In this document: positions 31,735 through 41,416 of the stretch, piece by piece
Position numbering within the stretch: the stretch's first letter is position 1
Layout of the letters: each line of letters starts with the position of its first letter
Source of the DNA: Lachnospiraceae bacterium
Lineage (GTDB): Bacteria; Bacillota; Clostridia; Lachnospirales; Lachnospiraceae
DNA: 43,229 bases
NCBI GenBank assembly: GCA_017617005.1
Contig: JAFZWW010000072.1
Location: 1 to 43,229 of the forward strand
Direction of reading: 5' to 3'
The notes under the pieces: model-generated
The model's input: the letters and a program-made list of their open reading frames with translations, nothing else
Database searches by the model: none
Told to the model about the DNA's origin: nothing
Translations under genes and position numbers: made by a program

Positions 31735-32073
31735 TTAATGCCTGATGAACTTGGCAACGACTTCCTGGGTTATGTCCCATTCTTCGCATTTAGCTCTGTA
31801 GTATTGCATTCCTAAGTCTGTGATGCGGTAATAGGTTCTCTTTTTACCGTTTCCGCTTCCGTCCTGATCAGCGGTGAATGATTCGATGTGTCCGTTCTTT
31901 TCCATTCTCGTAAAGGCCGAGTAGAGCGTTGTTTCCTTGATGACGTATTTCTCATCCGTGATGCTCTTGATCTGCTTTGAGATCTCGTAGCCGTATGAGG
32001 GCCCGTTTAAGAGTATGAAAAGGATCATCGTGTCGTTATAACCGCGGATCACATCCGAGCTTATTTCAACCAT
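31735..32073 (-). CDS. PadR-family transcriptional repressor
   Basis: A 112-residue winged-helix DNA-binding protein. The PadR pattern is clear: ILFILLNGPSYGYEISKQI, TTLYSAFTRMEKNGHIES and KKRTYYRITDLGMQYY. It has a short C-terminal helix for dimerisation and would repress its own operon until an inducer binds. CGGAGG about 7 nt before ATG is a strong ribosome site. Its promoter region carries palindromic TACGAC-GTCGTA elements that fit operators. It heads the PadR-HAAS-DUF4097 operon. Confidence 0.9.
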   Translation of the reverse strand: MVEISSDVIRGYNDTMILFILLNGPSYGYEISKQIKSITDEKYVIKETTLYSAFTRMEKNGHIESFTADQDGSGNGKKRTYYRITDLGMQYYRAKCEEWDITQEVVAKFIRH

Positions 32074-32134: not shown

Positions 32135-32179
32135 CAGTCGTACTATGTCTGCCGTACTACGACAGTCGTACTATGTCTG
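32135..32179. repeat. 17-nt direct repeats upstream of padR
   Basis: CAGTCGTACTATGTCTG occurs at 32135-32151 and exactly again at 32163-32179 (28 nt apart). A partial third copy (CAGTCGTAGGATGTC) is at 32200-32214. Within the second copy lies TACGAC-A-GTCGTA (32158-32170). These look like repeated operators, most likely for the PadR protein. All lie between the promoter and the padR start or on the promoter. Confidence 0.7.
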
Positions 32180-32187
32180 ATGTGGTA

Positions 32188-32216
32188 AATATACTACGAC
32201 AGTCGTAGGATGTCAA
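32188..32216 (-). promoter_or_regulatory. Promoter of padR operon with perfect dyad in the spacer
   Basis: On the minus strand, TTGACA (32211-32216, consensus) and TATATT (32188-32193) are 17 nt apart. The spacer contains the perfect 7-bp-arm palindrome CTACGAC-T-GTCGTAG (32194-32208). A repressor bound there would block RNA polymerase. The leader to the padR start is about 110 nt and contains further copies of the motif. Confidence 0.75.
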
Positions 32217-32267: not shown

Positions 32268-32301
32268 AAAAAACAAGCCTGCGGAAGATCCCGCAGGCTT
32301 T
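32268..32301 (-). terminator. Terminator of the hydrolase-ligase gene
   Basis: On the minus strand, AAGCCTGCGG (32291-32300) pairs with CCGCAGGCTT (32275-32284) around a 6-nt loop and is followed by GTTTTTTG. It lies 31 nt after the stop codon and separates this operon from the padR promoter. Confidence 0.85.
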
Positions 32302-32331: not shown

Positions 32332-34812
32332 TCATTTTGACTTGCCGATCAGGCTGATCTCCATGATCTTGTCGCAGAGGTCTCCGAAGCTTCTTCCCGC
32401 AGCTTTTGCGGAAATGACAAGGTCGGAATCGGGATAGAGCTGGGGCAGGGAGTCGCACTCGAGGCAGACGAAGGATTTTCCGTCCTGTCCTACGATGAAG
32501 TCGAACTTCGCATATGCGTTTACGCCGAGTGCAAATGCGGCATCCTCCGCGGTCTTACGGAGCGCCTGCGCAAGCTCTTCGGGAATATCGGCGGGACATT
32601 TGTTGATCGTCTTTCCGGACAGGGTAAGGCCTTTTTCCCTGTCGCTTGTCTCCATGGGAAGCTTTTCGAGAATGGGAAGAGACTTTCCTTCGATGGTGCA
32701 TACCGCAAATTCGCGTCCGGGGAAATATTCCTCGACAAGGATCTCGGTATCCCATCTGAATGCGGCTTTGACTGCTTTTTCATATGCGGTCAGGTCGGTC
32801 GCAACGGAGATACCGACGCCGATTCCTCCGTTGTTGGGCTTGACGATAACGGGAAGCTTGAGTCCCATGGTCTCGGGATCGGGTATGTCGGATGCCTTCT
32901 TGATGGTGTATCCGGCAGGTACGGGAACTCCGAGTGTCTGCATGAGCTGCTTGGCGGCAGCTTTGTTGGATGAGATGGCGGATGAGAAATAATCGCATCC
33001 GGTGTAATCGAGTCCGAGGAGATCGAATGCCGCCTGAACCTTGCCGTTCTCACCGTTTGCTCCGTGGAGCGCGATGAAGATAAGGTCGGACTGTCTGCAT
33101 ATCTGGAGAACATTGGGCCCGAAGTATGCACCGGACTGGTCGGGACGGCGCTTTCTGGTCGCCCACAGATCGGGTATCTCATCGGGAATGTCACCGGGTG
33201 AGAGGGAATATTTGAAGGGTGCTTCGAATACGTTGCCTTCAAGTATCTCTTCAGAGTCTCCGTAACCCATGAATGCATCGAGCAGTATTACGCTGTTTCC
33301 CCTGCTCCTGAGGATATCGGCAACGGTGACACCGGTCTTGAGGGAAAGGTTTCTTTCGTTGGACAGACCGCCCGCAAGCACTACGATGTTGAGATTTCCG
33401 GGAAGTACGAATTCCCTGAGCTCATCCTCGGAAAGACGGACCTCTTCAACGACAAGATCGGATCCGTCCATATTGAGCTCGAGCGTCGAAACCATCTGCC
33501 TTGTGAGTGAGGCGATGCGGAGTATGCTGGTCACCTGATCGGGCTTGAGGTCGACATCGTATTTCTTTTTCACGAAGGACCTGATGCTCTTGTTGATAGG
33601 ACGGTTTACGTGTACTACGAGAAAATCAGTTACACCGAGAAGGGCGTTGAGCTTTCTTGAGGTCACAAGGTCGTCGACCATATCGATGATCTTGAGAACA
33701 TCATCGGCCCTGAATGCGGTCATTATGCTCCTCATAGATTTGAGGAGGTCGGGATTCTTACGTGAATAGAGTATGCAGTACGCGAGAACGTATGCGACAT
33801 TGTCGGAGTACTTGGGGTCTCCTATCATATCGCAGAGGAATGTTATGAATTCTGATATGTCACAGCCGTTTGAAAGTGAGAATGCTTTTTCGACCAGCAT
33901 TCCGATGAGGTGGTTTGTTTCGGCACTTTCTTTTTCGCTGACGGCGGAGCGGATCATGCTGTTGATGAACTGGTCGATGATCTGCATCTCAGGGCGCTGT
34001 CCGCCGGGATTGACGCGGATATTGTAATCGCCGTTTTCACCGAAATCGAAGAAGGTGTTCGGAGCGTGCGATTCGGTGAATCCGAACTTACCGTAATCGT
34101 ATCCGATGTAATATGTCTTTTCGCCTATGTCATTCATAAGAATGTTCACATAGTCGAAATCGATGTTGTGGTTTTCGATGATGCCCTGGCGCGCGATGAT
34201 GCGCTTGCGGTAGTGGTCGATGAACTTGTCCGAAAATCCCTGTCCGTCAAAGGAAACACAGCGGAAAGGAGTGTCGTTCAGTATGGTGATGTATTTTGCT
34301 TTGTTGCCGCCCTTGGAGTGTCCGATGACGGTGACGTTGTAATTATCGAGATCGTATTTTTCGTAGACCTGCTTGTACCATTCGAGTGCGTTGATCTGCT
34401 GGAGTGAATCGACCTGTCCCGCGCCTTCGAAATCGTCGGTCCATTCATTCTCTGCGGTTCCCCTGAATGCTACGACCGCTTCGTGCTTGCCGTTTTCTCC
34501 GGGTTCGTCCGAGTCGTTCAGTACCACTATGGATATTCCGCCACCCGCACCGAATGCGTTGTCGAGATGAGCTTCGGCGATCCTGGCATTCGTGATCGAT
34601 GGATTCTTTTTCATCGCAAGGAAGATATTGCGGAAGTCGGTGCCGTTCATCTGGGTGGTGTATGTGACCTCCTCATCGAGGCCGTTCATATCGGTCTTTG
34701 CGATAAACTCGCCGACTGTCATTCCTTCACCCTTGAGGATTGAATAGAAGGGAGGAATGTCGGGGATATAGGTAAGATGTTCGATCAAAAGCAGTTCGTC
34801 GGTTCTGTACAT
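32332..34812 (-). CDS. Serine alpha/beta-hydrolase fused to D-Ala-D-Ala-ligase-like ATP-grasp domain
   Basis: An 826-residue fusion with no signal peptide or TM seen, so probably cytoplasmic. Residues 1-300 form an alpha/beta hydrolase of lipase (Mbeg1/DUF2974-like) type: AFRGTAENEWTDDFEG, and a nucleophile elbow GHSKGG with Ser166. Residues about 300-465 are a helical linker of unknown kind. Residues 474-820 are an ATP-grasp ligase with the Ddl pattern: LAGGLSNERNLSLKTG (481-498), LHGANGENGKVQAAFDLLGL, YTGCDYFSSAISSNKAAAKQ, IVKPNNGGIGVGISV and VEEYFPGREFAV. Metal ligands would be Asp771, Glu785 and Asp787 (ECD), where Ddl has Asn at the last. The omega-loop YxAKYxxxxT region is replaced by SDREKGLTLSGKT. 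The substrate is likely not simply D-Ala-D-Ala. AGGAG 9 nt upstream supports ATG. It is 27 nt after the cNMP-binding gene. Confidence 0.82.
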   Translation of the reverse strand: MYRTDELLLIEHLTYIPDIPPFYSILKGEGMTVGEFIAKTDMNGLDEEVTYTTQMNGTDFRNIFLAMKKNPSITNARIAEAHLDNAFGAGGGISIVVLNDSDEPGENGKHEAVVAFRGTAENEWTDDFEGAGQVDSLQQINALEWYKQVYEKYDLDNYNVTVIGHSKGGNKAKYITILNDTPFRCVSFDGQGFSDKFIDHYRKRIIARQGIIENHNIDFDYVNILMNDIGEKTYYIGYDYGKFGFTESHAPNTFFDFGENGDYNIRVNPGGQRPEMQIIDQFINSMIRSAVSEKESAETNHLIGMLVEKAFSLSNGCDISEFITFLCDMIGDPKYSDNVAYVLAYCILYSRKNPDLLKSMRSIMTAFRADDVLKIIDMVDDLVTSRKLNALLGVTDFLVVHVNRPINKSIRSFVKKKYDVDLKPDQVTSILRIASLTRQMVSTLELNMDGSDLVVEEVRLSEDELREFVLPGNLNIVVLAGGLSNERNLSLKTGVTVADILRSRGNSVILLDAFMGYGDSEEILEGNVFEAPFKYSLSPGDIPDEIPDLWATRKRRPDQSGAYFGPNVLQICRQSDLIFIALHGANGENGKVQAAFDLLGLDYTGCDYFSSAISSNKAAAKQLMQTLGVPVPAGYTIKKASDIPDPETMGLKLPVIVKPNNGGIGVGISVATDLTAYEKAVKAAFRWDTEILVEEYFPGREFAVCTIEGKSLPILEKLPMETSDREKGLTLSGKTINKCPADIPEELAQALRKTAEDAAFALGVNAYAKFDFIVGQDGKSFVCLECDSLPQLYPDSDLVISAKAAGRSFGDLCDKIMEISLIGKSK

Positions 34813-34839
34813 AGTTTGGTACTCCTGTAAGAATAATGA

Positions 34840-35322
34840 TCAGTTTGATTCAATCTCTTCTATAAGTGCCTGGTAGACCAGGTTGAGGTTCTCGTTCTCT
34901 TTTCTGATATTGCGGACAAGATTGATACCGATGAAACGCAGAAGCGATACTCCCGCCGAAGGATGCGAATCAGCAAACGCATCGAAATCCTTCTTGGAGA
35001 TGCTTAAGGATACGCAGTCGGTTCTTGCCTTGACCGTGGCGGATCTGGTGTCGCTGTCGATCAGAGCCATTTCGCCGAATACGCAGTGCATTGCACTGTC
35101 GAGGCTCGCACATACGAATTTGTCACCGAAGACGGTTGTCTTGATGATATCCACGCTGCCGTCGATCAGGAAATACATATCGTTTCCGGTGGCACCTTCG
35201 GTTATGATGTTTTCTCCCGCGGATGCTTTCGATACCTTCAAAAGCGCCGCGAAATCTTCAAGGTCCTTTTCCGACAATGAATTGAAAAGAGGGAATTGCT
35301 TCAGTTTATCCGTGTATTCCAT
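34840..35322 (-). CDS. Stand-alone cyclic-nucleotide-binding domain protein
   Basis: A 160-residue soluble protein consisting essentially of one cNMP-binding beta-barrel. The phosphate-binding cassette is FGEMALIDSDTRSATV at residues 82-97, with the key Glu84 and Arg93; VSLSISKKDFDAF follows. There is no helix-turn-helix, so it is not a CRP/FNR transcription factor. The C-terminal helices (NLVRNIRKENENLNLVYQALIEE) may mediate dimerisation. Its ATG overlaps the channel stop by one base (TGATG), which implies coupling and tight stoichiometry with the channel. It may act as a detached ligand-sensing subunit for the channel or the hydrolase-ligase. No nucleotide cyclase is present in the window. 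Confidence 0.85.
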   Translation of the reverse strand: MEYTDKLKQFPLFNSLSEKDLEDFAALLKVSKASAGENIITEGATGNDMYFLIDGSVDIIKTTVFGDKFVCASLDSAMHCVFGEMALIDSDTRSATVKARTDCVSLSISKKDFDAFADSHPSAGVSLLRFIGINLVRNIRKENENLNLVYQALIEEIESN

Positions 35323-36506
35323 CAGACCTCCACTCCCAGTATTATCGCTCCGGAATTGGCGGGGATCACATAATCATCGCCGGGATTGAGGAGCGGTTTA
35401 TTTGTTTCCATTGTTTTGACAGTCTTGAGACGCTGGATGATCTCACCGTAATTGGTGGATTTTTGTGCCTCGGAAAGAATGCTGTGCTTGATCTCTTTTT
35501 CGACACCCATGTTCTCGAGGATGCCGAGGAGAAGTATGTTCTTCTCCTTCTTGTAATTGTCGAAGAGCTCGGAGTATTTCCTGCCGATCCACTTTTCGGG
35601 AACGGGCTCGATCTGGACGGAGATACCGTCGCCGTTATCGAGGAGCGAGCTCATGACCTTGCTCATTCCGCTGTAGTTGGTGGATGTTGTGAGAATGTGT
35701 CTTGTGTATTCTTCGGTGTAGATTATCTCGGCACAGCCCTGTGCTTCGAGATAGTTGCGGTAGCGCTCGGTTCTTATCTGTGCGCATATATGACATTTGG
35801 AATTGAGATTTCTTGCAAGGAGTGCGGTGACGAATACTCTCGAGTCGATCAGCTCATCGTCGAGGTTATCCCCGCTCTCGCCGACGATAAGAACCTTGGC
35901 TGCGGAACCTATGGCCGCATTCTTCAGAGTCTGTTCCTCGGTGAAATCTCCCTTGAGGATATTGAGGCCCTTCAGAACGGGATCGTCCCTGAGTGCCTGG
36001 ATCTTGACGTCATCGGCCCCGGTGATGAGGATGATATCGGATACGGAGAGATTCCTGTTTTTGCGGAGGATTCCCGTGATGAGATTCTTTATGTCGTTTT
36101 TCCAGCCGCATACAATGATGTGATCTTTCATGTTCTGCATTTTCCTGATTCCTCTTTCCGCATTCAGTTTGCTGGCCACAAGGGCGGATGATATATATCC
36201 TGTTATGGTGGAAAGCCCGAGTACTCCCAGGGAGAGTACTATCAGTCCGAGTATCCTGCCTCCGGGGGTTCCGGTAAATTCATAATCGTTACCGGCAAGA
36301 GCGAGGAGGTTGTAGATCAGCACATCCAGGAAGGTCAGTCCCTCTTCCCTGGCTCCGCCGAATATATAGCATGCATAACATACCAAAAGAACCAGCATCA
36401 GGATCATTGTTATCTTCGCAATGTGCGAATCCCGGATCCTCAGACTCAGGCTCTTTTTTACTCTGGTTTCGGGTATGTGGTTTTGGTCTTCCTTATAACT
36501 GCCCAT
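35322..36506 (-). CDS. Two-TM ion channel with RCK-type cytosolic domain (CASTOR/POLLUX-like)
   Basis: A 394-residue membrane protein. TM1 is about residues 32-51, TM2 about 85-111, with a pore loop between (FLDVLIYNLLALAGNDYEFTGTPGGR). The canonical K+ filter TVGYGD is absent; its place is held by LAGNDYE. From about 125 follows a Rossmann-type RCK fold (HIIVCGWKNDIKNLI, LKGDFTEEQTLKNAAI, AAKVLIVGES) and a C-terminal TrkA_C-like domain. This arrangement resembles the CASTOR/POLLUX/DMI1 channels more than MthK. Selectivity is uncertain. No ribosome site precedes the ATG. A promoter whose -10 ends 9 nt before it suggests a leaderless message. First gene of a three-gene operon with the cNMP protein and the hydrolase-ligase. 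Confidence 0.8.
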   Translation of the reverse strand: MGSYKEDQNHIPETRVKKSLSLRIRDSHIAKITMILMLVLLVCYACYIFGGAREEGLTFLDVLIYNLLALAGNDYEFTGTPGGRILGLIVLSLGVLGLSTITGYISSALVASKLNAERGIRKMQNMKDHIIVCGWKNDIKNLITGILRKNRNLSVSDIILITGADDVKIQALRDDPVLKGLNILKGDFTEEQTLKNAAIGSAAKVLIVGESGDNLDDELIDSRVFVTALLARNLNSKCHICAQIRTERYRNYLEAQGCAEIIYTEEYTRHILTTSTNYSGMSKVMSSLLDNGDGISVQIEPVPEKWIGRKYSELFDNYKKEKNILLLGILENMGVEKEIKHSILSEAQKSTNYGEIIQRLKTVKTMETNKPLLNPGDDYVIPANSGAIILGVEV

Positions 36507-36515
36507 ACATAGATT

Positions 36516-36544
36516 ATTTTACTGTATTTCGGGCATTTTATCCA
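36516..36544 (-). promoter_or_regulatory. Promoter placed directly before the channel ATG (leaderless)
   Basis: On the minus strand, TGGATA (36539-36544) and TAAAAT (36516-36521) are 17 nt apart. The -10 ends 9 nt before the ATG at 36506, so transcription would begin about at the start codon. No GGAG-like site lies in that leader. Confidence 0.4.
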
Positions 36545-36641: not shown

Positions 36642-37379
36642 ATGTACAGGGTGTATCTGGTCGATGACGATCGTTTCATACTGGAAGAACTCACGGAGAT
36701 CATTCCCTGGATGGAGAATGGCTTTGAAGTTATCGGAAGCAACACGGATCCCGAAAAAGCGGTGGGGGAGATTCTTGAGCTCGGAGCGGATGCGGTCTTC
36801 TGCGATATGAAGATGCCCAAGATGAACGGTAACGAGCTGATCTCAAGACTGAAGGACAACGGCTGCTGTGCGGAGTTCGTTGTCATCTCCGCATACGATG
36901 ATTTTGAAAATGTACGTACTTTCTACCGTCAGAACGGTTTTGATTATATCCTCAAGCCCGTCGATATAGATGACGTCAGGATCGTGCTCGAAAAGCTCAA
37001 TGCGAAGCTTTCCGAGAACAGGCCCGTCGAAAGCGGCAGCGTAACGGACAATCCCGGATTCAACAGCCTCGTAAAATATGTGGATGACAATTTCACCGAG
37101 AAGATAACACTCTCATCACTTGCCGAGAAATTCGGCTTCAGCAGGAATTATATCTGTGCCCTTTTTCAGAAATATTACAATCAGTCGCTGAGTATCTACC
37201 TTACGGAAAAAAGAATGAAATATGCGGGAGAACTCATAGGCGATAAGACCCTTCTGATAAAACAGGTTGGCGTCATGTGCGGCTACACGGATTATTATCA
37301 TTTTTTCAAAGTGTTCAAGAATTATTACGGAGTTTCTCCGAAGGAGATGAGGAATCCCGGTGAACAGGAAGATCTGTAA
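36642..37379 (+). CDS. YesN-type response regulator with AraC output
   Basis: A 245-residue transcription factor. The N-terminal receiver (VYLVDDDRF) has phospho-acceptor Asp55 in FCDMKMPKMNG and the KP motif (YILKPVD). The C-terminal part, from about residue 140, is an AraC/XylS double helix-turn-helix (SSLAEKFGFSRNYICALFQKYYNQSLSIYL, VGVMCGYTDYYHFFKVFKNYYGVSPKEMR). It is shorter than typical YesN proteins because the linker between domains is minimal. The ribosome site GGGGAGAGG is about 5 nt before ATG. TATGAT/TAAAAT at 36600-36610 is a likely -10. It heads a four-gene overlapping operon whose kinase is the last gene. Confidence 0.9.
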   Translation: MYRVYLVDDDRFILEELTEIIPWMENGFEVIGSNTDPEKAVGEILELGADAVFCDMKMPKMNGNELISRLKDNGCCAEFVVISAYDDFENVRTFYRQNGFDYILKPVDIDDVRIVLEKLNAKLSENRPVESGSVTDNPGFNSLVKYVDDNFTEKITLSSLAEKFGFSRNYICALFQKYYNQSLSIYLTEKRMKYAGELIGDKTLLIKQVGVMCGYTDYYHFFKVFKNYYGVSPKEMRNPGEQEDL

Positions 37380-38766
37380 ACTTCTTACAATCGTTCTCGT
37401 TATATCACTTATGTATGTGCCGGGCTGCGGTATGAAACCGCAGCCCGATATCTTGCATGTCGCAATTCCGTTTTCGGAAAAAATCCAGGATATCGATACG
37501 AATTATTACATCAACTATCTTGAAGAAAAGACGGGGCTCGATATCGTGGTCTCCTTCGTCAAGATCGAAAGCTGCGATGAATACCTTGAGGTGCTCCTGG
37601 ATTCCAGGTCCGAGATCGATATTGTGCTTTTCGGAGGAAGCTTTGTCCCGAGTGACGGAGTGCTCGAGGAATACGTAGCACGCGGGGATATTTATCTCCC
37701 GGACGGAGAATTTAAATACGTGTCGGAAGGCTGGGATACTCCGGCCGGTGCGGGTACGGTGCTGTGGATAAGCAAGGAATGGCTCGTAAAGCTCGGAATG
37801 CCGATCCCGGAAACTACGGAGGAATTCGAAGCCGTGCTGGAAGCATTCAAAACCGGCGATCCGAACGGAAACGGAATTCATGACGAGATACCGCTCGCAG
37901 GCTCTTTGGACGAATATGATCTTGACCCCGTTGAATTCCTTTTGGGTTCTTTTGCGGTAAATGATCCATATCATTCGAGGATGACCGTAGACGGGAAGTG
38001 TATGGCGACATGTAACGCATACCGCGAAGGAATCGAGTACTGCAATGAACTATTCGATAAGGGCCTTATATATGACGGGCTTTCCGAATGCTCTTACGCA
38101 CAGCTCTGTGAAATGGTGAACAGACCGGTCCCTGTCGTCGGCGCGTTTACTTCTTCATCGATAGGCAAAGTGATATACGGCGGAAACCCCGAAGTGATGG
38201 CAAGATATGTGCATGTTCCTCCTTTAAAGGGTCCTGACGGAACTGCTGCAGCAATGCTTCCCGAAAACAAAACGAAGATAGGAGCGGTGATCCTTTCGAG
38301 AAGTGAAAAGAAAGAAGAGGCACAGCTTCTGCTTGATACGATGATGACCGAAGAAGCCTCTCTCATCGCAAGATTCGGAGAGCCGGGCGTTGACTGGGAT
38401 TATTCGGACGGAAAGGACATAAGCATTTATATGATCCCTTCAACCATCATCACAAGGAATTACATCCGCGACGTTGTACAGAATAAGAATCTGAACGGTG
38501 TCGGCCCGATGGCGGTTCCCGAAAAATATATCTTCGGAGTTACATGGAACGGAGTTAATTCGGATTCGGAATATGTCGATGCGAGAGCGCAGATGGCATA
38601 TCTGGACTTTTTTGTGCAGGCCGGAGATGGCCTGCCCGAAAGAAACGAAGAACTCTCGGAATATCTGGATGGATACATGATCATGTTTGTGACGGGAGAA
38701 AAAGATATCACCGATGACGGCGTATGGAAGAAATATGTTTCAGATGCGGAGAGGATCATAAAATGA
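37360..38766 (+). CDS. LplA/YtcQ-type solute-binding lipoprotein
   Basis: A 468-residue secreted lipoprotein. A signal peptide (MNRKICKLLTIVLVISLMYVPGC) ends in a lipobox-like VPGC with Cys23. The family-1 solute-binding fold carries the Ca2+-binding-like stretch GDPNGNGIHDEIPLAG typical of LplA-like sugar-binding lipoproteins. GTG 37360 is the start: it gives a full signal peptide, overlaps the regulator gene by 20 nt, and GAGG lies about 8 nt upstream. No ABC permease or ATPase is nearby, so it may act as a sensor partner of the YesM kinase or serve a distant transporter. The ligand is unknown; carbohydrates are the usual ligands of the family. Confidence 0.85.
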   Translation: MNRKICKLLTIVLVISLMYVPGCGMKPQPDILHVAIPFSEKIQDIDTNYYINYLEEKTGLDIVVSFVKIESCDEYLEVLLDSRSEIDIVLFGGSFVPSDGVLEEYVARGDIYLPDGEFKYVSEGWDTPAGAGTVLWISKEWLVKLGMPIPETTEEFEAVLEAFKTGDPNGNGIHDEIPLAGSLDEYDLDPVEFLLGSFAVNDPYHSRMTVDGKCMATCNAYREGIEYCNELFDKGLIYDGLSECSYAQLCEMVNRPVPVVGAFTSSSIGKVIYGGNPEVMARYVHVPPLKGPDGTAAAMLPENKTKIGAVILSRSEKKEEAQLLLDTMMTEEASLIARFGEPGVDWDYSDGKDISIYMIPSTIITRNYIRDVVQNKNLNGVGPMAVPEKYIFGVTWNGVNSDSEYVDARAQMAYLDFFVQAGDGLPERNEELSEYLDGYMIMFVTGEKDITDDGVWKKYVSDAERIIK

Positions 38767-39914
38767 AAAGAATGATCACAAAATTCATATCCGTTTCCCT
38801 GGCTGCCGCGATGATGCTTGTTCCCGCCGCATGCGGAAGGACCACGGAGGAAGATGTCTGGCTTGAAAAAGCCGGACTGGATAAGGAAGAGACCGCAGAG
38901 GAACTCTATGAAAAAGCATTGCAGGAAAATGTTCTTGTGGTATACACGGTTTCAACCAGGGCAACGCAGACCAAGGAAGCGTTTGAGGCCGTTTATCCCG
39001 GCTTGTGCGTGGAGATAAAGGATCTGAGAAGCCCGGATCTTGTCGATGCGTTGGAAGAAAATTACCGGAGCGGACATTCCGACTGCGATGTCGTGATCTG
39101 CAATGACAACAGCGGAGAGTTTAAGGAACGCATAGCCGATACCGGTATTGCGGTGCCCTATCTGCCTTCTGACATAGCTGCCAAAATGAAGGATCCGGAA
39201 AGCAATACCATGGGGTCTTTCACTTATGAAGCGGAGATGCTTTTTTACAATTCCGAGAAATATGCTGAGTGTCCCATCGAAAACATATGGGAACTTACGG
39301 ATGAAAAATATAAGGACAGGATATATATGCCGAATCCCTTGCATTCTTTTTCGACATATGCATTCTGCGGAGGACTTCTCGGCGAGGAGGACAAACTTGC
39401 CGAAGCATACAGGGATCTCTACGGATGTGCGCCCGAGACGGGGGATGCAAGCGTATCGGCCTTTTTCTGGAAGAGCGTATCCGAAAATATCATCTTTACC
39501 AACAGTTCCGATGAGGTGCTTGAAGCTCTGGGATCGGGCAGTGCGGATTTCGGTTTCATGGTATCGAGCAAACTGAGATTCATCAATCTCGGATATGACA
39601 TAGCTCCCGTGTACAGACTGAAGCCCTTCAGCGGATGCAGAACATCGTATTCCGCAATGATCGTAAGGAATTCCGAGAACATCAATTCTGCCAAACTTTT
39701 CATCAGGTTTCTCTACGGGGAGAGCGACGGAAGCGGAGAAGGATACAAACCTTTTTCCACAGGCGGAACATGGTCGGCCAGAACAGATATCCCTGACGGA
39801 AACGATGTGCCTCTTGATGATATTGATCTGTTTGTTCCGGATCAGGATGTGCTGATAAAAAACAGGGAGTACCTTGAAAATTTTTGGACGGGCGTACTGG
39901 AATCTAAAGCGTGA
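38763..39914 (+). CDS. AfuA-type solute-binding lipoprotein
   Basis: A 383-residue secreted lipoprotein with a signal peptide and lipobox LVPAAC (Cys24). The mature part has the family-1 bacterial binding-protein fold of the ferric/polyamine/sugar-phosphate type (VLVVYTVSTRATQTKEAFEAVYPG, DVVICND, YMPNPLHSFSTYAF and SYSAMIVRNSENINSAKLFIRFLYG). ATG 38763 is used: it overlaps the preceding TGA as ATGA, and GAGAGG lies about 8-10 nt upstream; an earlier in-frame ATG would destroy the signal peptide. It is the second, distinct binding protein in this operon and is followed by the kinase at a 4-nt overlap. In other Firmicutes, AfuA-like proteins serve as extracellular sensors for YesM-type kinases (e.g. 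HptA in HptARS). Confidence 0.85.
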   Translation: MKRMITKFISVSLAAAMMLVPAACGRTTEEDVWLEKAGLDKEETAEELYEKALQENVLVVYTVSTRATQTKEAFEAVYPGLCVEIKDLRSPDLVDALEENYRSGHSDCDVVICNDNSGEFKERIADTGIAVPYLPSDIAAKMKDPESNTMGSFTYEAEMLFYNSEKYAECPIENIWELTDEKYKDRIYMPNPLHSFSTYAFCGGLLGEEDKLAEAYRDLYGCAPETGDASVSAFFWKSVSENIIFTNSSDEVLEALGSGSADFGFMVSSKLRFINLGYDIAPVYRLKPFSGCRTSYSAMIVRNSENINSAKLFIRFLYGESDGSGEGYKPFSTGGTWSARTDIPDGNDVPLDDIDLFVPDQDVLIKNREYLENFWTGVLESKA

Positions 39915-41416
39915 ATAAGAATACCGGCAAAAACAGAACGATAGTACTGATGTTGTTCGGAGCTGTGATCGTGCTGCTCTGGGTGGTATTCTATCTGATC
40001 ACGGTCAGGATCATCAGGCAGAATATGGAGCGCCATGCGATGAGCGCTGTGGGCACCATCATAAACGACGTCGGCAACGAACTTCTTCTGATGGAAGAAT
40101 CTTCTTCGATCCTTTCCGGTGAGGAGAGTGTGAAGAATATCGCAGGTGCCGGATACGGTGAAGATTTCTATGCTATGGGAAGGGTTGCACAGGAGACACT
40201 TGAGCCTGCGCTGAAGAGAATAATAAACGCCGATAATGTCATCATATATAATCCCGACGGTGAATTCTACAGACTTAAGGGAACCGCTCCCAACACAATC
40301 GCTGTCAGGTCGTTCTGGATCATCAGCGAAGGAAAGAGCGACAGAATGGTATCCGTATCTTCGGGTTCGGATAATTATGTCGGCATATACCAGAAGATCG
40401 AAGATAACGGAAAGTGCATCGGTTATGTTCTTCTTTTGATGGATCACAGAAAGGTTGAAAAACTTCTTTCGACTTATAACGATCCCGACTATATAGGTTC
40501 GGCGCTTTATTACGGTGACAAGCTTATATGCACGGGCGGAGGCATCGGCAGGGAGGATTTGGAAAGCCGGCTTGAGAAGGCCATTTATGTCAGCGAAAGA
40601 TCCGTAGGATTTACCGGTTACAGGATCGTTGTATATTGCGTCGATTCCGTTTCACTGGATGTAGCAAGATTTTTCAGGATCGCACTTCCCGTTACGATCC
40701 TGATACTGGTGATCGTCGGTTTTATCTTTGAAAGGTTCATGAGAAGGTTTGTAAAGACGAGCATAGACCTCGAGCTTGAAAGGACGAATCTTTCTCTTTT
40801 GAAAAAGCAGATAAGCGCGCACTTTACAGTAAACACCCTGAACATAGTAAGGGCACTTATCGGAAAGGGCGATAAGGAAACGGCGGCGAGGATCTGTACC
40901 GAGCTTTCGGTTCTCCTGAGATATGCCAACGCTTCGGATGAGTATATATCGCTTCTTGAAGAATTGTATGTGCTCAAACAGTATACCGAGATAATGCAGG
41001 CGAGATATCCCGATAAGATAAATGTCCGTTTCGGCGAAGATGATTCGTTCAGTGATATCCTTGTTCCCAGAATGCTGATCCAGCCCATTGTCGAAAATGC
41101 GATAATGCACGGTCTTTCGGGAGAGGGAGGAAATCTTGAGATCGATGCACGCAGTGAAAAAGAAGACCTGTTCATAACCGTTTCGGATGACGGAAAGGGA
41201 ATGGATGCCGGGGAGCTGGAAAAGGCAAGAGGAACTGCGGAAAGCCCGGATACGGACGGTCACGGAAGTCTCGATCATATAGCGCTTGCAAATGTAAGAA
41301 AAAGGATCGAGGTACTGTTCGGGGGTGAATACGGACTGGATATCGAATCCGATGTCAGCAGGGGAACCTGTGTGACGGTTCATCTTCCTCTGATAACGTC
41401 CGATAAGAAAAAATAA
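39911..41416 (+). CDS. YesM-type sensor histidine kinase
   Basis: A 501-residue membrane kinase. TM1 is about residues 12-34, an extracytoplasmic sensory region of about 220 residues follows, TM2 is near 257-277. The His_kinase/HATPase module has an H-box variant LKKQISAHFTVNTLNIVRALI with His304 (canonical QINPHFLYNTLN) and the ATP-binding boxes LIQPIVENAIMHGL, DDGKGMD and ALANVRKRI. GTG 39911 overlaps the preceding TGA (GTGA), so a coupled start is likely. It pairs with the AraC-type regulator at the head of the operon. The genes between encode two binding proteins, so it may sense them in their ligand-bound state. Confidence 0.9.
   Translation: MNKNTGKNRTIVLMLFGAVIVLLWVVFYLITVRIIRQNMERHAMSAVGTIINDVGNELLLMEESSSILSGEESVKNIAGAGYGEDFYAMGRVAQETLEPALKRIINADNVIIYNPDGEFYRLKGTAPNTIAVRSFWIISEGKSDRMVSVSSGSDNYVGIYQKIEDNGKCIGYVLLLMDHRKVEKLLSTYNDPDYIGSALYYGDKLICTGGGIGREDLESRLEKAIYVSERSVGFTGYRIVVYCVDSVSLDVARFFRIALPVTILILVIVGFIFERFMRRFVKTSIDLELERTNLSLLKKQISAHFTVNTLNIVRALIGKGDKETAARICTELSVLLRYANASDEYISLLEELYVLKQYTEIMQARYPDKINVRFGEDDSFSDILVPRMLIQPIVENAIMHGLSGEGGNLEIDARSEKEDLFITVSDDGKGMDAGELEKARGTAESPDTDGHGSLDHIALANVRKRIEVLFGGEYGLDIESDVSRGTCVTVHLPLITSDKKK

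What the first reader, a model, noticed from the sequence alone, without database searches (positions are those of the whole stretch)
32332..36506. Channel / cNMP-binding domain / hydrolase-ligase fusion operon of unknown function
Three minus-strand genes are tightly linked (1-nt overlap, then 27 nt): a two-TM channel with an RCK domain, a stand-alone cyclic-nucleotide-binding domain, and an 826-residue lipase-like hydrolase joined to a Ddl-like ATP-grasp domain. The operon is closed by its own terminator and begins with its own promoter. I know no described system with this composition. The logic (small ligand sensor, membrane conductance, hydrolase plus peptide-bond-type ligase) could fit a stress, envelope or defence module, but that is conjecture.
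Basis: partly seen in the sequence, partly recalled or inferred. Interest (0 to 1): 0.78.

Follow-up and report, generated by a model that had tools for sequence, protein, structure and literature searches.

The report
Channel, cyclic-nucleotide sensor, lipase-ligase operon
Three genes that travel together in gut and rumen bacteria appear to form one module: a membrane channel, a cyclic-nucleotide sensor, and a lipase resembling a secreted bacterial toxin whose export tail has been replaced by an altered D-alanine-ligase-like domain; what the module does has not been tested.

Summary
The operon is real and conserved. Of 29 loci found with the 826-aa fusion, 22 Lachnospiraceae loci show the upstream side: all 22 have the sensor gene directly upstream and the channel before it (one channel is a remnant). 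In 31 genomes of the genus, channel, sensor and fusion occur in the same 15. In two Anaeroplasma genomes channel and sensor form a separate operon while the fusion lies elsewhere.

The fusion's first ~456 residues resemble 'reverse-domain' type VII lipases; where those carry a secretion tail, it has a Ddl-like domain that keeps ATP-site residues but has lost the D-Ala pocket (canonical in 10 of 10 stand-alone Ddl). All 15 operon genomes of the genus have another Ddl, and mollicutes with 0-1 Mur-ligase hits carry the fusion, so a cell-wall D-Ala role is unlikely.

Best model (mechanism inferred): cyclic nucleotide on the sensor gates the channel, whose GNDY filter is not TVGYG and shares Gly-Asn with plant CASTOR Ca2+ channels; ion entry switches on the cytosolic lipase. 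In one Anaeroplasma locus a Ca2+-type pump gene follows the fusion. Defence is not supported by what was tested.

The parts
35322..36506 (-). CHN: 394-aa channel subunit, two membrane segments and RCK-type domain
   Evidence: ORF; Pfam Slo-like_RCK, TrkA_N; hydropathy; profile match to MthK 4.3e-5
36282..36296 (-). Pore filter AGNDY (residues 71-75); GNDY invariant
   Evidence: 19 of 19 in alignment A1; also in both Anaeroplasma channels
34840..35322 (-). CNB: 160-aa stand-alone cyclic-nucleotide-binding protein
   Evidence: ORF; Pfam cNMP_binding 3.1e-17; PDB matches
35032..35079 (-). Phosphate-binding cassette of CNB (residues 82-97, E84 and R93)
   Evidence: E84 and R93 in 20 of 20
34849..34923 (-). 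Conserved C-terminal tail of CNB (residues 134-158), proposed docking surface
   Evidence: conservation in alignment A2 and in Anaeroplasma; docking is inference
32332..34812 (-). FUS: 826-aa lipase / Ddl-like fusion
   Evidence: ORF; Pfam; 25-sequence alignment A3
33445..34812 (-). Hydrolase half of FUS (residues 1-456); Ser166, Asp220, His249 probable triad
   Evidence: invariant in 25 of 25 fusions and 11 of 11 of mixed alignment A5; triad assignment is inference
32335..33396 (-). Ddl-like ATP-grasp half of FUS (residues 473-826)
   Evidence: Pfam, PDB alignments, residue counts
32275..32300 (-). Intrinsic terminator
   Evidence: 11-pair stem with T run
36516..36544 (-). Weak promoter-like site TGGATA-17-TAAAAT
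   Evidence: 9 of 12 matches; not clearly above chance

Best explanation
A three-protein signalling module. (1) CHN and CNB form a cyclic-nucleotide-gated channel split into two polypeptides: CNB binds a cyclic nucleotide, probably cAMP or cGMP made by the cell's class III cyclase, and gates the RCK channel in trans, perhaps through its conserved tail. (2) FUS is a cytosolic derivative of a type VII reverse-domain lipase (TslA-like) in which the helical secretion tail has been replaced by a Ddl-derived ATP-grasp domain that probably still binds ATP-Mg but not D-Ala, so a regulatory or re-targeted ligase domain. (3) Ion entry through the channel, perhaps Ca2+, switches on the lipase, which acts on the inner face of the cell's own membrane. 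Shown: anatomy, co-inheritance, conservation, homology, domain replacement. Inferred: ligand, gating in trans, ion, lipase activity and the coupling.
For: Linkage: CNB and CHN upstream in 22 of 22 evaluable Lachnospiraceae loci. The same 15 of 31 genus genomes hold all three, adjacent in 15 of 15 by coordinates. Both Anaeroplasma genomes have CHN-CNB as a separate two-gene operon. Distance matrices of the three proteins agree over 21 loci sets (r 0.957, 0.899, 0.926; 0 of 999 permutations as high). dN/dS 0.013-0.104 in 15 of 16 comparisons. Sensor E84 and R93 in 20 of 20; own genome has a CHASE2-class III cyclase. Lipase half aligns with proteins of type VII loci to about residue 456, where their helical tail begins; Ser/Asp/His invariant. 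TslA is reported as a phospholipase A toxic only when exported, and its authors speculate that cytosolic Ca2+ is too low for it (PMC10730906, passages and Discussion). In Anaeroplasma L028 the gene 17 nt after FUS encodes a P-type ATPase, best NCBIfam model PMR1-type Ca2+ transporter (4e-194, 647 bits, below its cut-off of 798). CASTOR, a Ca2+ channel with predicted filter AD(S/A)GNHA, also lacks TVGYG (PMC6697748, passages).
Against: No ligand, ion or enzyme activity was tested. CASTOR's filter Asp265, which its authors suspect is essential, has no equivalent (Leu/Val/Ile/Met here), and the sequence match to CASTOR is only E 0.2. Channel and FUS can part: G265/L005 keeps CNB and FUS with a channel remnant, and G280 and G281 have FUS with no channel hit (completeness not given). 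The cyclase is genus-wide (13 of 15 with, 11 of 16 without the operon), so not tied to the module. TslA itself was not compared by sequence. The Ca2+-pump link is one locus. In L034 no type VII marker was seen (one large ORF tested).
Confidence: 0.4

Rival explanations
1. Channel and sensor are an ion or osmotic homeostasis unit, and the fusion is a metabolic enzyme: the hydrolase cleaves a lipid or ester and the Ddl-derived domain ligates a new substrate. No ion-triggered lipase.
For: ATP-site residues kept in 24-25 of 25 fusions while the acceptor pocket changes in a conserved way; purifying selection on the Ddl-like half, dN/dS 0.04-0.10; CHN-CNB and FUS are separate loci in Anaeroplasma.
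Against: Position 255 Arg and 276 Gly, recalled as catalytic in Ddl, are changed in 25 of 25; does not explain why CHN, CNB and FUS are co-inherited when unlinked.
Confidence: 0.28
2. Anti-phage or abortive-infection module: a cyclic nucleotide made on infection opens the channel and activates the lipase, killing the cell (Pycsar-like logic).
For: Patchy presence, 15 of 31 genus genomes; sensor matches Pycsar TIR-effector models through its CNBD (4.2e-19); toxin-like lipase ancestry.
Against: No cyclase beside it; the one PF00211 match of the genome is on another contig. No channel relative in phages or plasmids; viral-contig scans confirmed none. Of 8 large neighbour proteins tested in 5 loci, 5 had no PADLOC match, 2 had weak ones to PDC-M43B, and 1 matched a DinG helicase model. 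dN/dS is low.
Confidence: 0.13
3. Envelope module in which the fusion makes D-Ala-D-Ala or a similar wall dipeptide.
For: Ddl homology.
Against: D-Ala pocket changed in 25 fusions against 10 of 10 canonical stand-alone Ddl; 15 of 15 operon genomes of the genus have another Ddl; Anaeroplasma and Acholeplasmatales genomes with 1, 1 and 0 Mur_ligase_M hits carry the fusion.
Confidence: 0.04
4. The lipase half is still a toxin kept in the cell, held by the Ddl-like half or by a partner, and released in competition or cell death; the channel is incidental.
For: Homologues in type VII loci with a partner gene directly upstream (17 of 17 proteins of 480 aa or more); signal-less partner homologues beside the fusion in L014, L015, L027, L028, L023.
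Against: No partner in the window operon and no match in 31 genus genomes (without positive control); co-inheritance with CHN-CNB; no secretion tail and no membrane segment.
Confidence: 0.12

Closest known systems
TslA / TilA reverse-domain type VII lipase and immunity lipoprotein (PMC10730906); reverse lipases also noted at other T7SS types (PMC11217815)
   Same: N-terminal lipase with Ser-Asp-His; homologues of the FUS half lie in WXG100 / FtsK-SpoIIIE loci behind a lipoprotein-type gene
   Different: FUS has a Ddl-like domain instead of the secretion tail and no WXG100 partner in its operon; a partner gene is absent from the window and signal-less where present. TslA was not compared by sequence
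[quoted passage not shown]
   Same: Both Ddl Pfam domains and most ATP/Mg-site residues
   Different: D-Ala pocket, omega-loop motif, Arg255, Asn272 and Gly276 equivalents changed; fused to a lipase
CASTOR / POLLUX / DMI1 Ca2+ channels (PMC6697748)
   Same: RCK channel with a non-TVGYG filter containing Gly-Asn
   Different: Two membrane segments, filter GNDY, no Asp265 equivalent; phmmer E 0.2; Castor_Poll_mid not listed at E 0.1
MthK-type RCK potassium channels
   Same: 2TM-RCK layout; profile match E 4.3e-5
   Different: No TVGYG filter; a separate cyclic-nucleotide protein accompanies it
SthK / MloK1 cyclic-nucleotide-gated channels
   Same: CNB resembles their sensor domain (SthK 1e-10 to 1e-11, MloK1 about 5e-9)
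   Different: Sensor is a separate protein; channel has an RCK domain and another filter
Pycsar defence
   Same: Cyclic-nucleotide sensor plus membrane-acting effector, as a type of logic (recalled)
   Different: No cyclase gene in the operon; sensor not fused to an effector

Membership tests
Ddl (D-Ala-D-Ala ligase) | ATP/Mg-site residues (Lys97, Lys144, Glu180, Asp257, Glu270; roles recalled) | tested here: met
   kept in 24 or 25 of 25 fusions
Ddl (D-Ala-D-Ala ligase) | D-Ala site residues (Ser150, Tyr216, Arg255, Gly276) and Mg ligand Asn272 (roles recalled) | tested here: not met
   each changed in 25 of 25 fusions; canonical in 10 of 10 stand-alone Ddl; the omega loop around 216 is poorly aligned, but its YDYxxKY motif is absent. 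Ser281 is kept in 15 of 25
Type VII reverse-domain lipase (TslA type) | N-terminal lipase with Ser/Asp/His | tested here: met
   Ser166, Asp220, His249 in 25 of 25 fusions and 11 of 11 of A5; activity not tested
Type VII reverse-domain lipase (TslA type) | C-terminal helical secretion tail | tested here: not met
   Ddl-like domain follows residue about 456 instead
Type VII reverse-domain lipase (TslA type) | immunity partner directly upstream | tested here: inconclusive
   not in the window operon and no match in 31 genus genomes (no positive control); signal-less homologue beside the fusion in L014, L015, L027, L028, L023
K+ channel (MthK type) | TVGYG-type filter | tested here: not met
   GNDY in 19 of 19
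CASTOR/POLLUX | filter AD(S/A)GNHA with Asp265 | tested here: not met
   Gly-Asn shared; Asp265 position is Leu, Val, Ile or Met
CASTOR/POLLUX | Ca2+ selectivity | not testable with these tools
   needs electrophysiology
Cyclic-nucleotide-binding domain | phosphate-binding cassette with conserved Glu and Arg | tested here: met
   E84 and R93 in 20 of 20
Cyclic-nucleotide-gated channel (SthK/MloK1) | sensor covalently attached to the pore protein | tested here: not met
   separate genes in the 22 evaluable Lachnospiraceae loci and both Anaeroplasma loci
Pycsar | dedicated cyclase in the same operon | tested here: not met
   only PF00211 match of the genome is on contig C138, window is C140

The most novel reading that the evidence does not exclude
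A bacterial 'signal to Ca2+ to phospholipase' circuit: a cyclic nucleotide opens a split, CASTOR-like cation channel through the separate sensor CNB, and the Ca2+ that enters activates a cytosolic lipase evolved from a secreted type VII toxin, whose export tail was exchanged for an ATP-binding Ddl domain that no longer uses D-Ala. It would be a bacterial counterpart of Ca2+-activated cytosolic phospholipase signalling and a toxin domesticated by tail exchange, shared by walled Lachnospiraceae and mollicutes.
Probability: 0.18. Interest if true: 0.88.

Novelty: new variant of a known kind. Interest (0 to 1): 0.62.

Why it matters
If right, it is an undescribed bacterial signalling module in which a cyclic-nucleotide sensor, a non-potassium-type RCK channel and a toxin-derived lipase act together, and it shows a route by which a secreted toxin becomes an internal enzyme. 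It makes three questions testable: whether a separate CNBD protein can gate an RCK channel, whether bacteria use ion entry to switch on a phospholipase, and what a Ddl fold does after losing its D-Ala site. Searches of the open-access library showed no paper on this combination in their listings; several listings were capped (10 of 148, 10 of 147, 6 of 189 papers) and most subscription papers are not held.

Tried and rejected
Peptidoglycan role: rejected. Defence/Pycsar: not supported. Phage or plasmid carriage: the channel had no match in phages or plasmids; the fusion was searched in plasmids only (558 records, none covering 80% of the query; 9 of the 10 listed match residues 472-822, one 361-820); two viral-contig scans matched 62 and 15 pattern stretches, none encoding a relative. 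The sensor was not searched in these collections. Cyclase as dedicated partner: not supported, genus-wide. Fusion as the only Ddl: rejected for the genus. Immunity-type partner elsewhere in the genus: no match, without positive control. Rfam (gathering threshold) and tRNA scans of the window: nothing. Literature on DUF2974, Mbeg1-like, bacterial CASTOR, Anaeroplasma wall: listings only, nothing on the module; the lipocone paper was opened for passages and does not bear on it. The wall-less state of mollicutes is recalled; one search gave no paper that I opened.
Full report
WHAT IS THERE. Pfam confirms an RCK-type domain, a cyclic-nucleotide-binding domain, and a protein with an Mbeg1-like hydrolase followed by both Ddl domains. 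The channel has two hydrophobic segments, the other two proteins none. The terminator at 32300-32275 is convincing; the promoter match at 36544-36516 is weak.

IT IS A MODULE. A genome-contig scan with the fusion returned 29 loci. Three are cut so that the upstream side is not in view (L020, L026, L029) and four are from other groups by record title (L023, L024, L025, L028). In the remaining 22, the sensor gene is directly upstream of the fusion (or of a fourth gene, see below) in 22 of 22 and the channel before it in 22 of 22; in L005 only a 62-aa channel remnant is left. Gaps measured in 21 of the 22 run from -4 to 61 nt, except 199 nt between channel and sensor in L016 as called, and 774-775 nt between sensor and fusion in L014, L015 and L027, where a fourth gene sits. 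ORF patterns around the operon differ between groups of loci (only some neighbours were annotated). In 31 genomes of the window's genus the channel is in 15, the fusion in 15 (in G261 on two contigs) and the sensor in the same 15, plus one 8e-11 hit in G267 inside a 311-aa frame. Coordinates show them adjacent in all 15. G264 has an extra channel fragment, G265 only a remnant, and G271 the channel in two pieces. In an even sample of 250 family genomes the channel was found in 2 (E <= 1e-20) and the full-length fusion in the same 2. Many of these genomes are incomplete drafts, so absences are soft.

UNLINKED CO-OCCURRENCE. Anaeroplasma bactoclasticum (L028) and an uncultured Anaeroplasma (L023) carry the fusion without the channel in the part read. 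A search of the genomes of seven loci found the channel elsewhere in both (7.5e-185 and 6.9e-181), followed directly by the sensor as a two-gene operon. The same search found no channel in G280 (Acholeplasmatales, L024) or G281 (Ca. Minthosoma, Bacteroidota, L025; taxonomy). Pairwise distances of the three proteins over 21 sets, both Anaeroplasma included, correlate at 0.957 (channel-fusion), 0.899 (channel-sensor) and 0.926 (sensor-fusion), with 0 of 999 permutations as high; some sets are near-identical, and most are linked, so part of this is expected. dN/dS of the window against L002, L004, L011 and L007 is 0.013-0.104 in 15 of 16 comparisons (one undefined; several dS above 1), against 0.031 and 0.038 for a neighbouring TrkA gene.

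THE HYDROLASE HALF. Four of the 250 family genomes have a protein matching only the first part of the fusion (G006, G166, G147, G142). The proteins read there (L031, L033 with two copies, L034, L035) are 538-559 aa. WXG100 genes lie near those of L031, L033 and L035, and an FtsK/SpoIIIE ATPase with FHA domain near those of L033 and L035; around L034 one large ORF was tested and is not of that kind. The alignment of four of these runs to fusion residue about 456; after it they have a tail of about 90 residues where the fusion has the Ddl-like domain. In a class-wide sample of 391 genomes, 23 (the window's own included) had a match to the hydrolase half. Among the loci read, 17 of 17 such proteins of 480 aa or more have a 219-294-aa gene directly upstream, and by eye 13 of the 17 show a lipobox-like Cys; several come from the same genome. 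Proteins of 431 aa or less mostly lack such a gene. Weak WXG100 or LXG matches in the tails of L055 and L067 are below cut-off. This is the arrangement of TslA and TilA, a phospholipase A with a C-terminal secretion tail and an immunity lipoprotein (PMC10730906: abstract, passages and Discussion); such reverse lipases were also noted at other T7SS types (PMC11217815, passages). TslA's sequence was not compared, and TilA is a DUF576 protein whereas the partner genes tested here had no Pfam match. The fourth gene in L014, L015, L027 and the gene before the fusion in L028 and L023 are homologous to these partner genes (L014 vs L028 41% over 228 aa; L014 vs L031 28%, E 2e-16 in a 12-sequence database without composition correction). 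In L014, L015, L027 and L028 they show no signal peptide by eye; L023 is called from an internal start. No relative was found in the 31 genus genomes, without a positive control.

THE DDL-LIKE HALF. Its best stand-alone relatives in the family sample are 35-46% identical; beside three of three tested lies a Mur ligase gene, and in L048 the two are fused. Positions were taken from the alignment with E. coli DdlB and counted in 25 fusions and 10 stand-alone Ddl (residue roles recalled). Kept: Lys144 and Glu180 25 of 25; Lys97, Asp257, Glu270 24 of 25; Glu15, His63, Glu187 22 of 25. Changed: Ser150 (Ile 24, Phe 1), Ser151 (Gly 25), Lys215 and Tyr216 (25 of 25, loop poorly aligned), Arg255 (Lys 22, Met 2, Asn 1), Asn272 (Asp 25), Gly276 (Gln 21, Glu 3, Asn 1), Leu282 (25 of 25). 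Ser281 is Ser in 15 and Ala in 10. All 17 positions were canonical in 10 of 10 stand-alone Ddl. L024 also lost several ATP-side residues. All 15 operon genomes of the genus have another PF07478 protein (E at most 4.2e-46). Mur ligase middle domains: 1 hit in G279 (9.0e-16), 0 in G280, 1 in G282 (4.3e-12), 6 in G281.

SENSOR AND CHANNEL. The sensor matches cyclic-nucleotide domains of kinases and channels, and its cassette FGEMALIDSDTRSATV keeps Glu84 and Arg93 in 20 of 20. Its tail ending VYQALIEEIE is nearly invariant, also in Anaeroplasma, which suggests a docking surface. The own genome has a CHASE2-class III cyclase, found in 24 of 31 genus genomes (13 of 15 with, 11 of 16 without the operon). 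The channel profile matches MthK at 4.3e-5, the single sequence CASTOR only at 0.2. The filter GNDY is invariant in 19 of 19 and present in both Anaeroplasma channels; it shares Gly-Asn with CASTOR's AD(S/A)GNHA but not Asp265 (PMC6697748, passages).

MECHANISM. The simplest model that uses all parts is that cyclic nucleotide on CNB gates CHN, and ion entry activates FUS. TslA's authors note that the lipase is toxic only outside the cell and speculate that cytosolic Ca2+ is too low for it. In L028 the gene 17 nt after the fusion encodes a P-type ATPase whose best NCBIfam model is the PMR1-type Ca2+ transporter (4e-194, 647 bits, cut-off 798). This is a single locus. Everything after anatomy and co-inheritance is inference.

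AGAINST. G265 keeps sensor and fusion with a channel remnant, and G271 has the channel frame in two pieces, perhaps an assembly matter. Two genomes have the fusion without a detected channel. PADLOC lists Pycsar TIR-effector models for the sensor (4.2e-19, through the CNBD), and among 8 neighbour proteins of other loci one DinG-type helicase (3e-114) and two weak PDC-M43B matches, which keeps the defence rival alive at low odds.

VERDICT. A real, conserved module that I found described in no listing I searched; its parts are variants of known kinds, and each family tested fails at least one defining feature for the whole.

Noticed in passing
window 32140-32216: The PadR-type regulator gene (31735-32073, -) has a strong promoter match TTGACA-17-TATATT overlapped by repeated palindromes around TACGACTGTCGTA, a likely operator; a membrane protein gene and a DUF4097 toastrack gene follow.
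   Followed up: partly
L028 10469-13234: P-type ATPase gene 17 nt after the fusion in Anaeroplasma; best NCBIfam model is the PMR1-type Ca2+ transporter, below its cut-off.
   Followed up: yes
L052 1177-2625: Relative of the hydrolase half, 482 aa, ending in a hydrophobic membrane-anchor-like segment instead of a secretion tail, beside a signal-less partner (221 aa): another internal variant of the lipase family.
   Followed up: partly
L055, L062-L065, L067, L069, L070, L073-L075: Lipoprotein-type gene directly before a long Mbeg1-like lipase gene, recurring in the class-wide sample.
   Followed up: partly
L048 8102-10543: Natural fusion of a Ddl and a Mur ligase, 813 aa.
   Followed up: no
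L081 (G265) and L082 (G271): Channel gene reduced to a remnant or lying in two pieces while sensor and fusion genes are intact.
   Followed up: partly
window 36642-41416: Divergent neighbour cluster: AraC-type response regulator, two solute-binding proteins and a histidine kinase.
   Followed up: no
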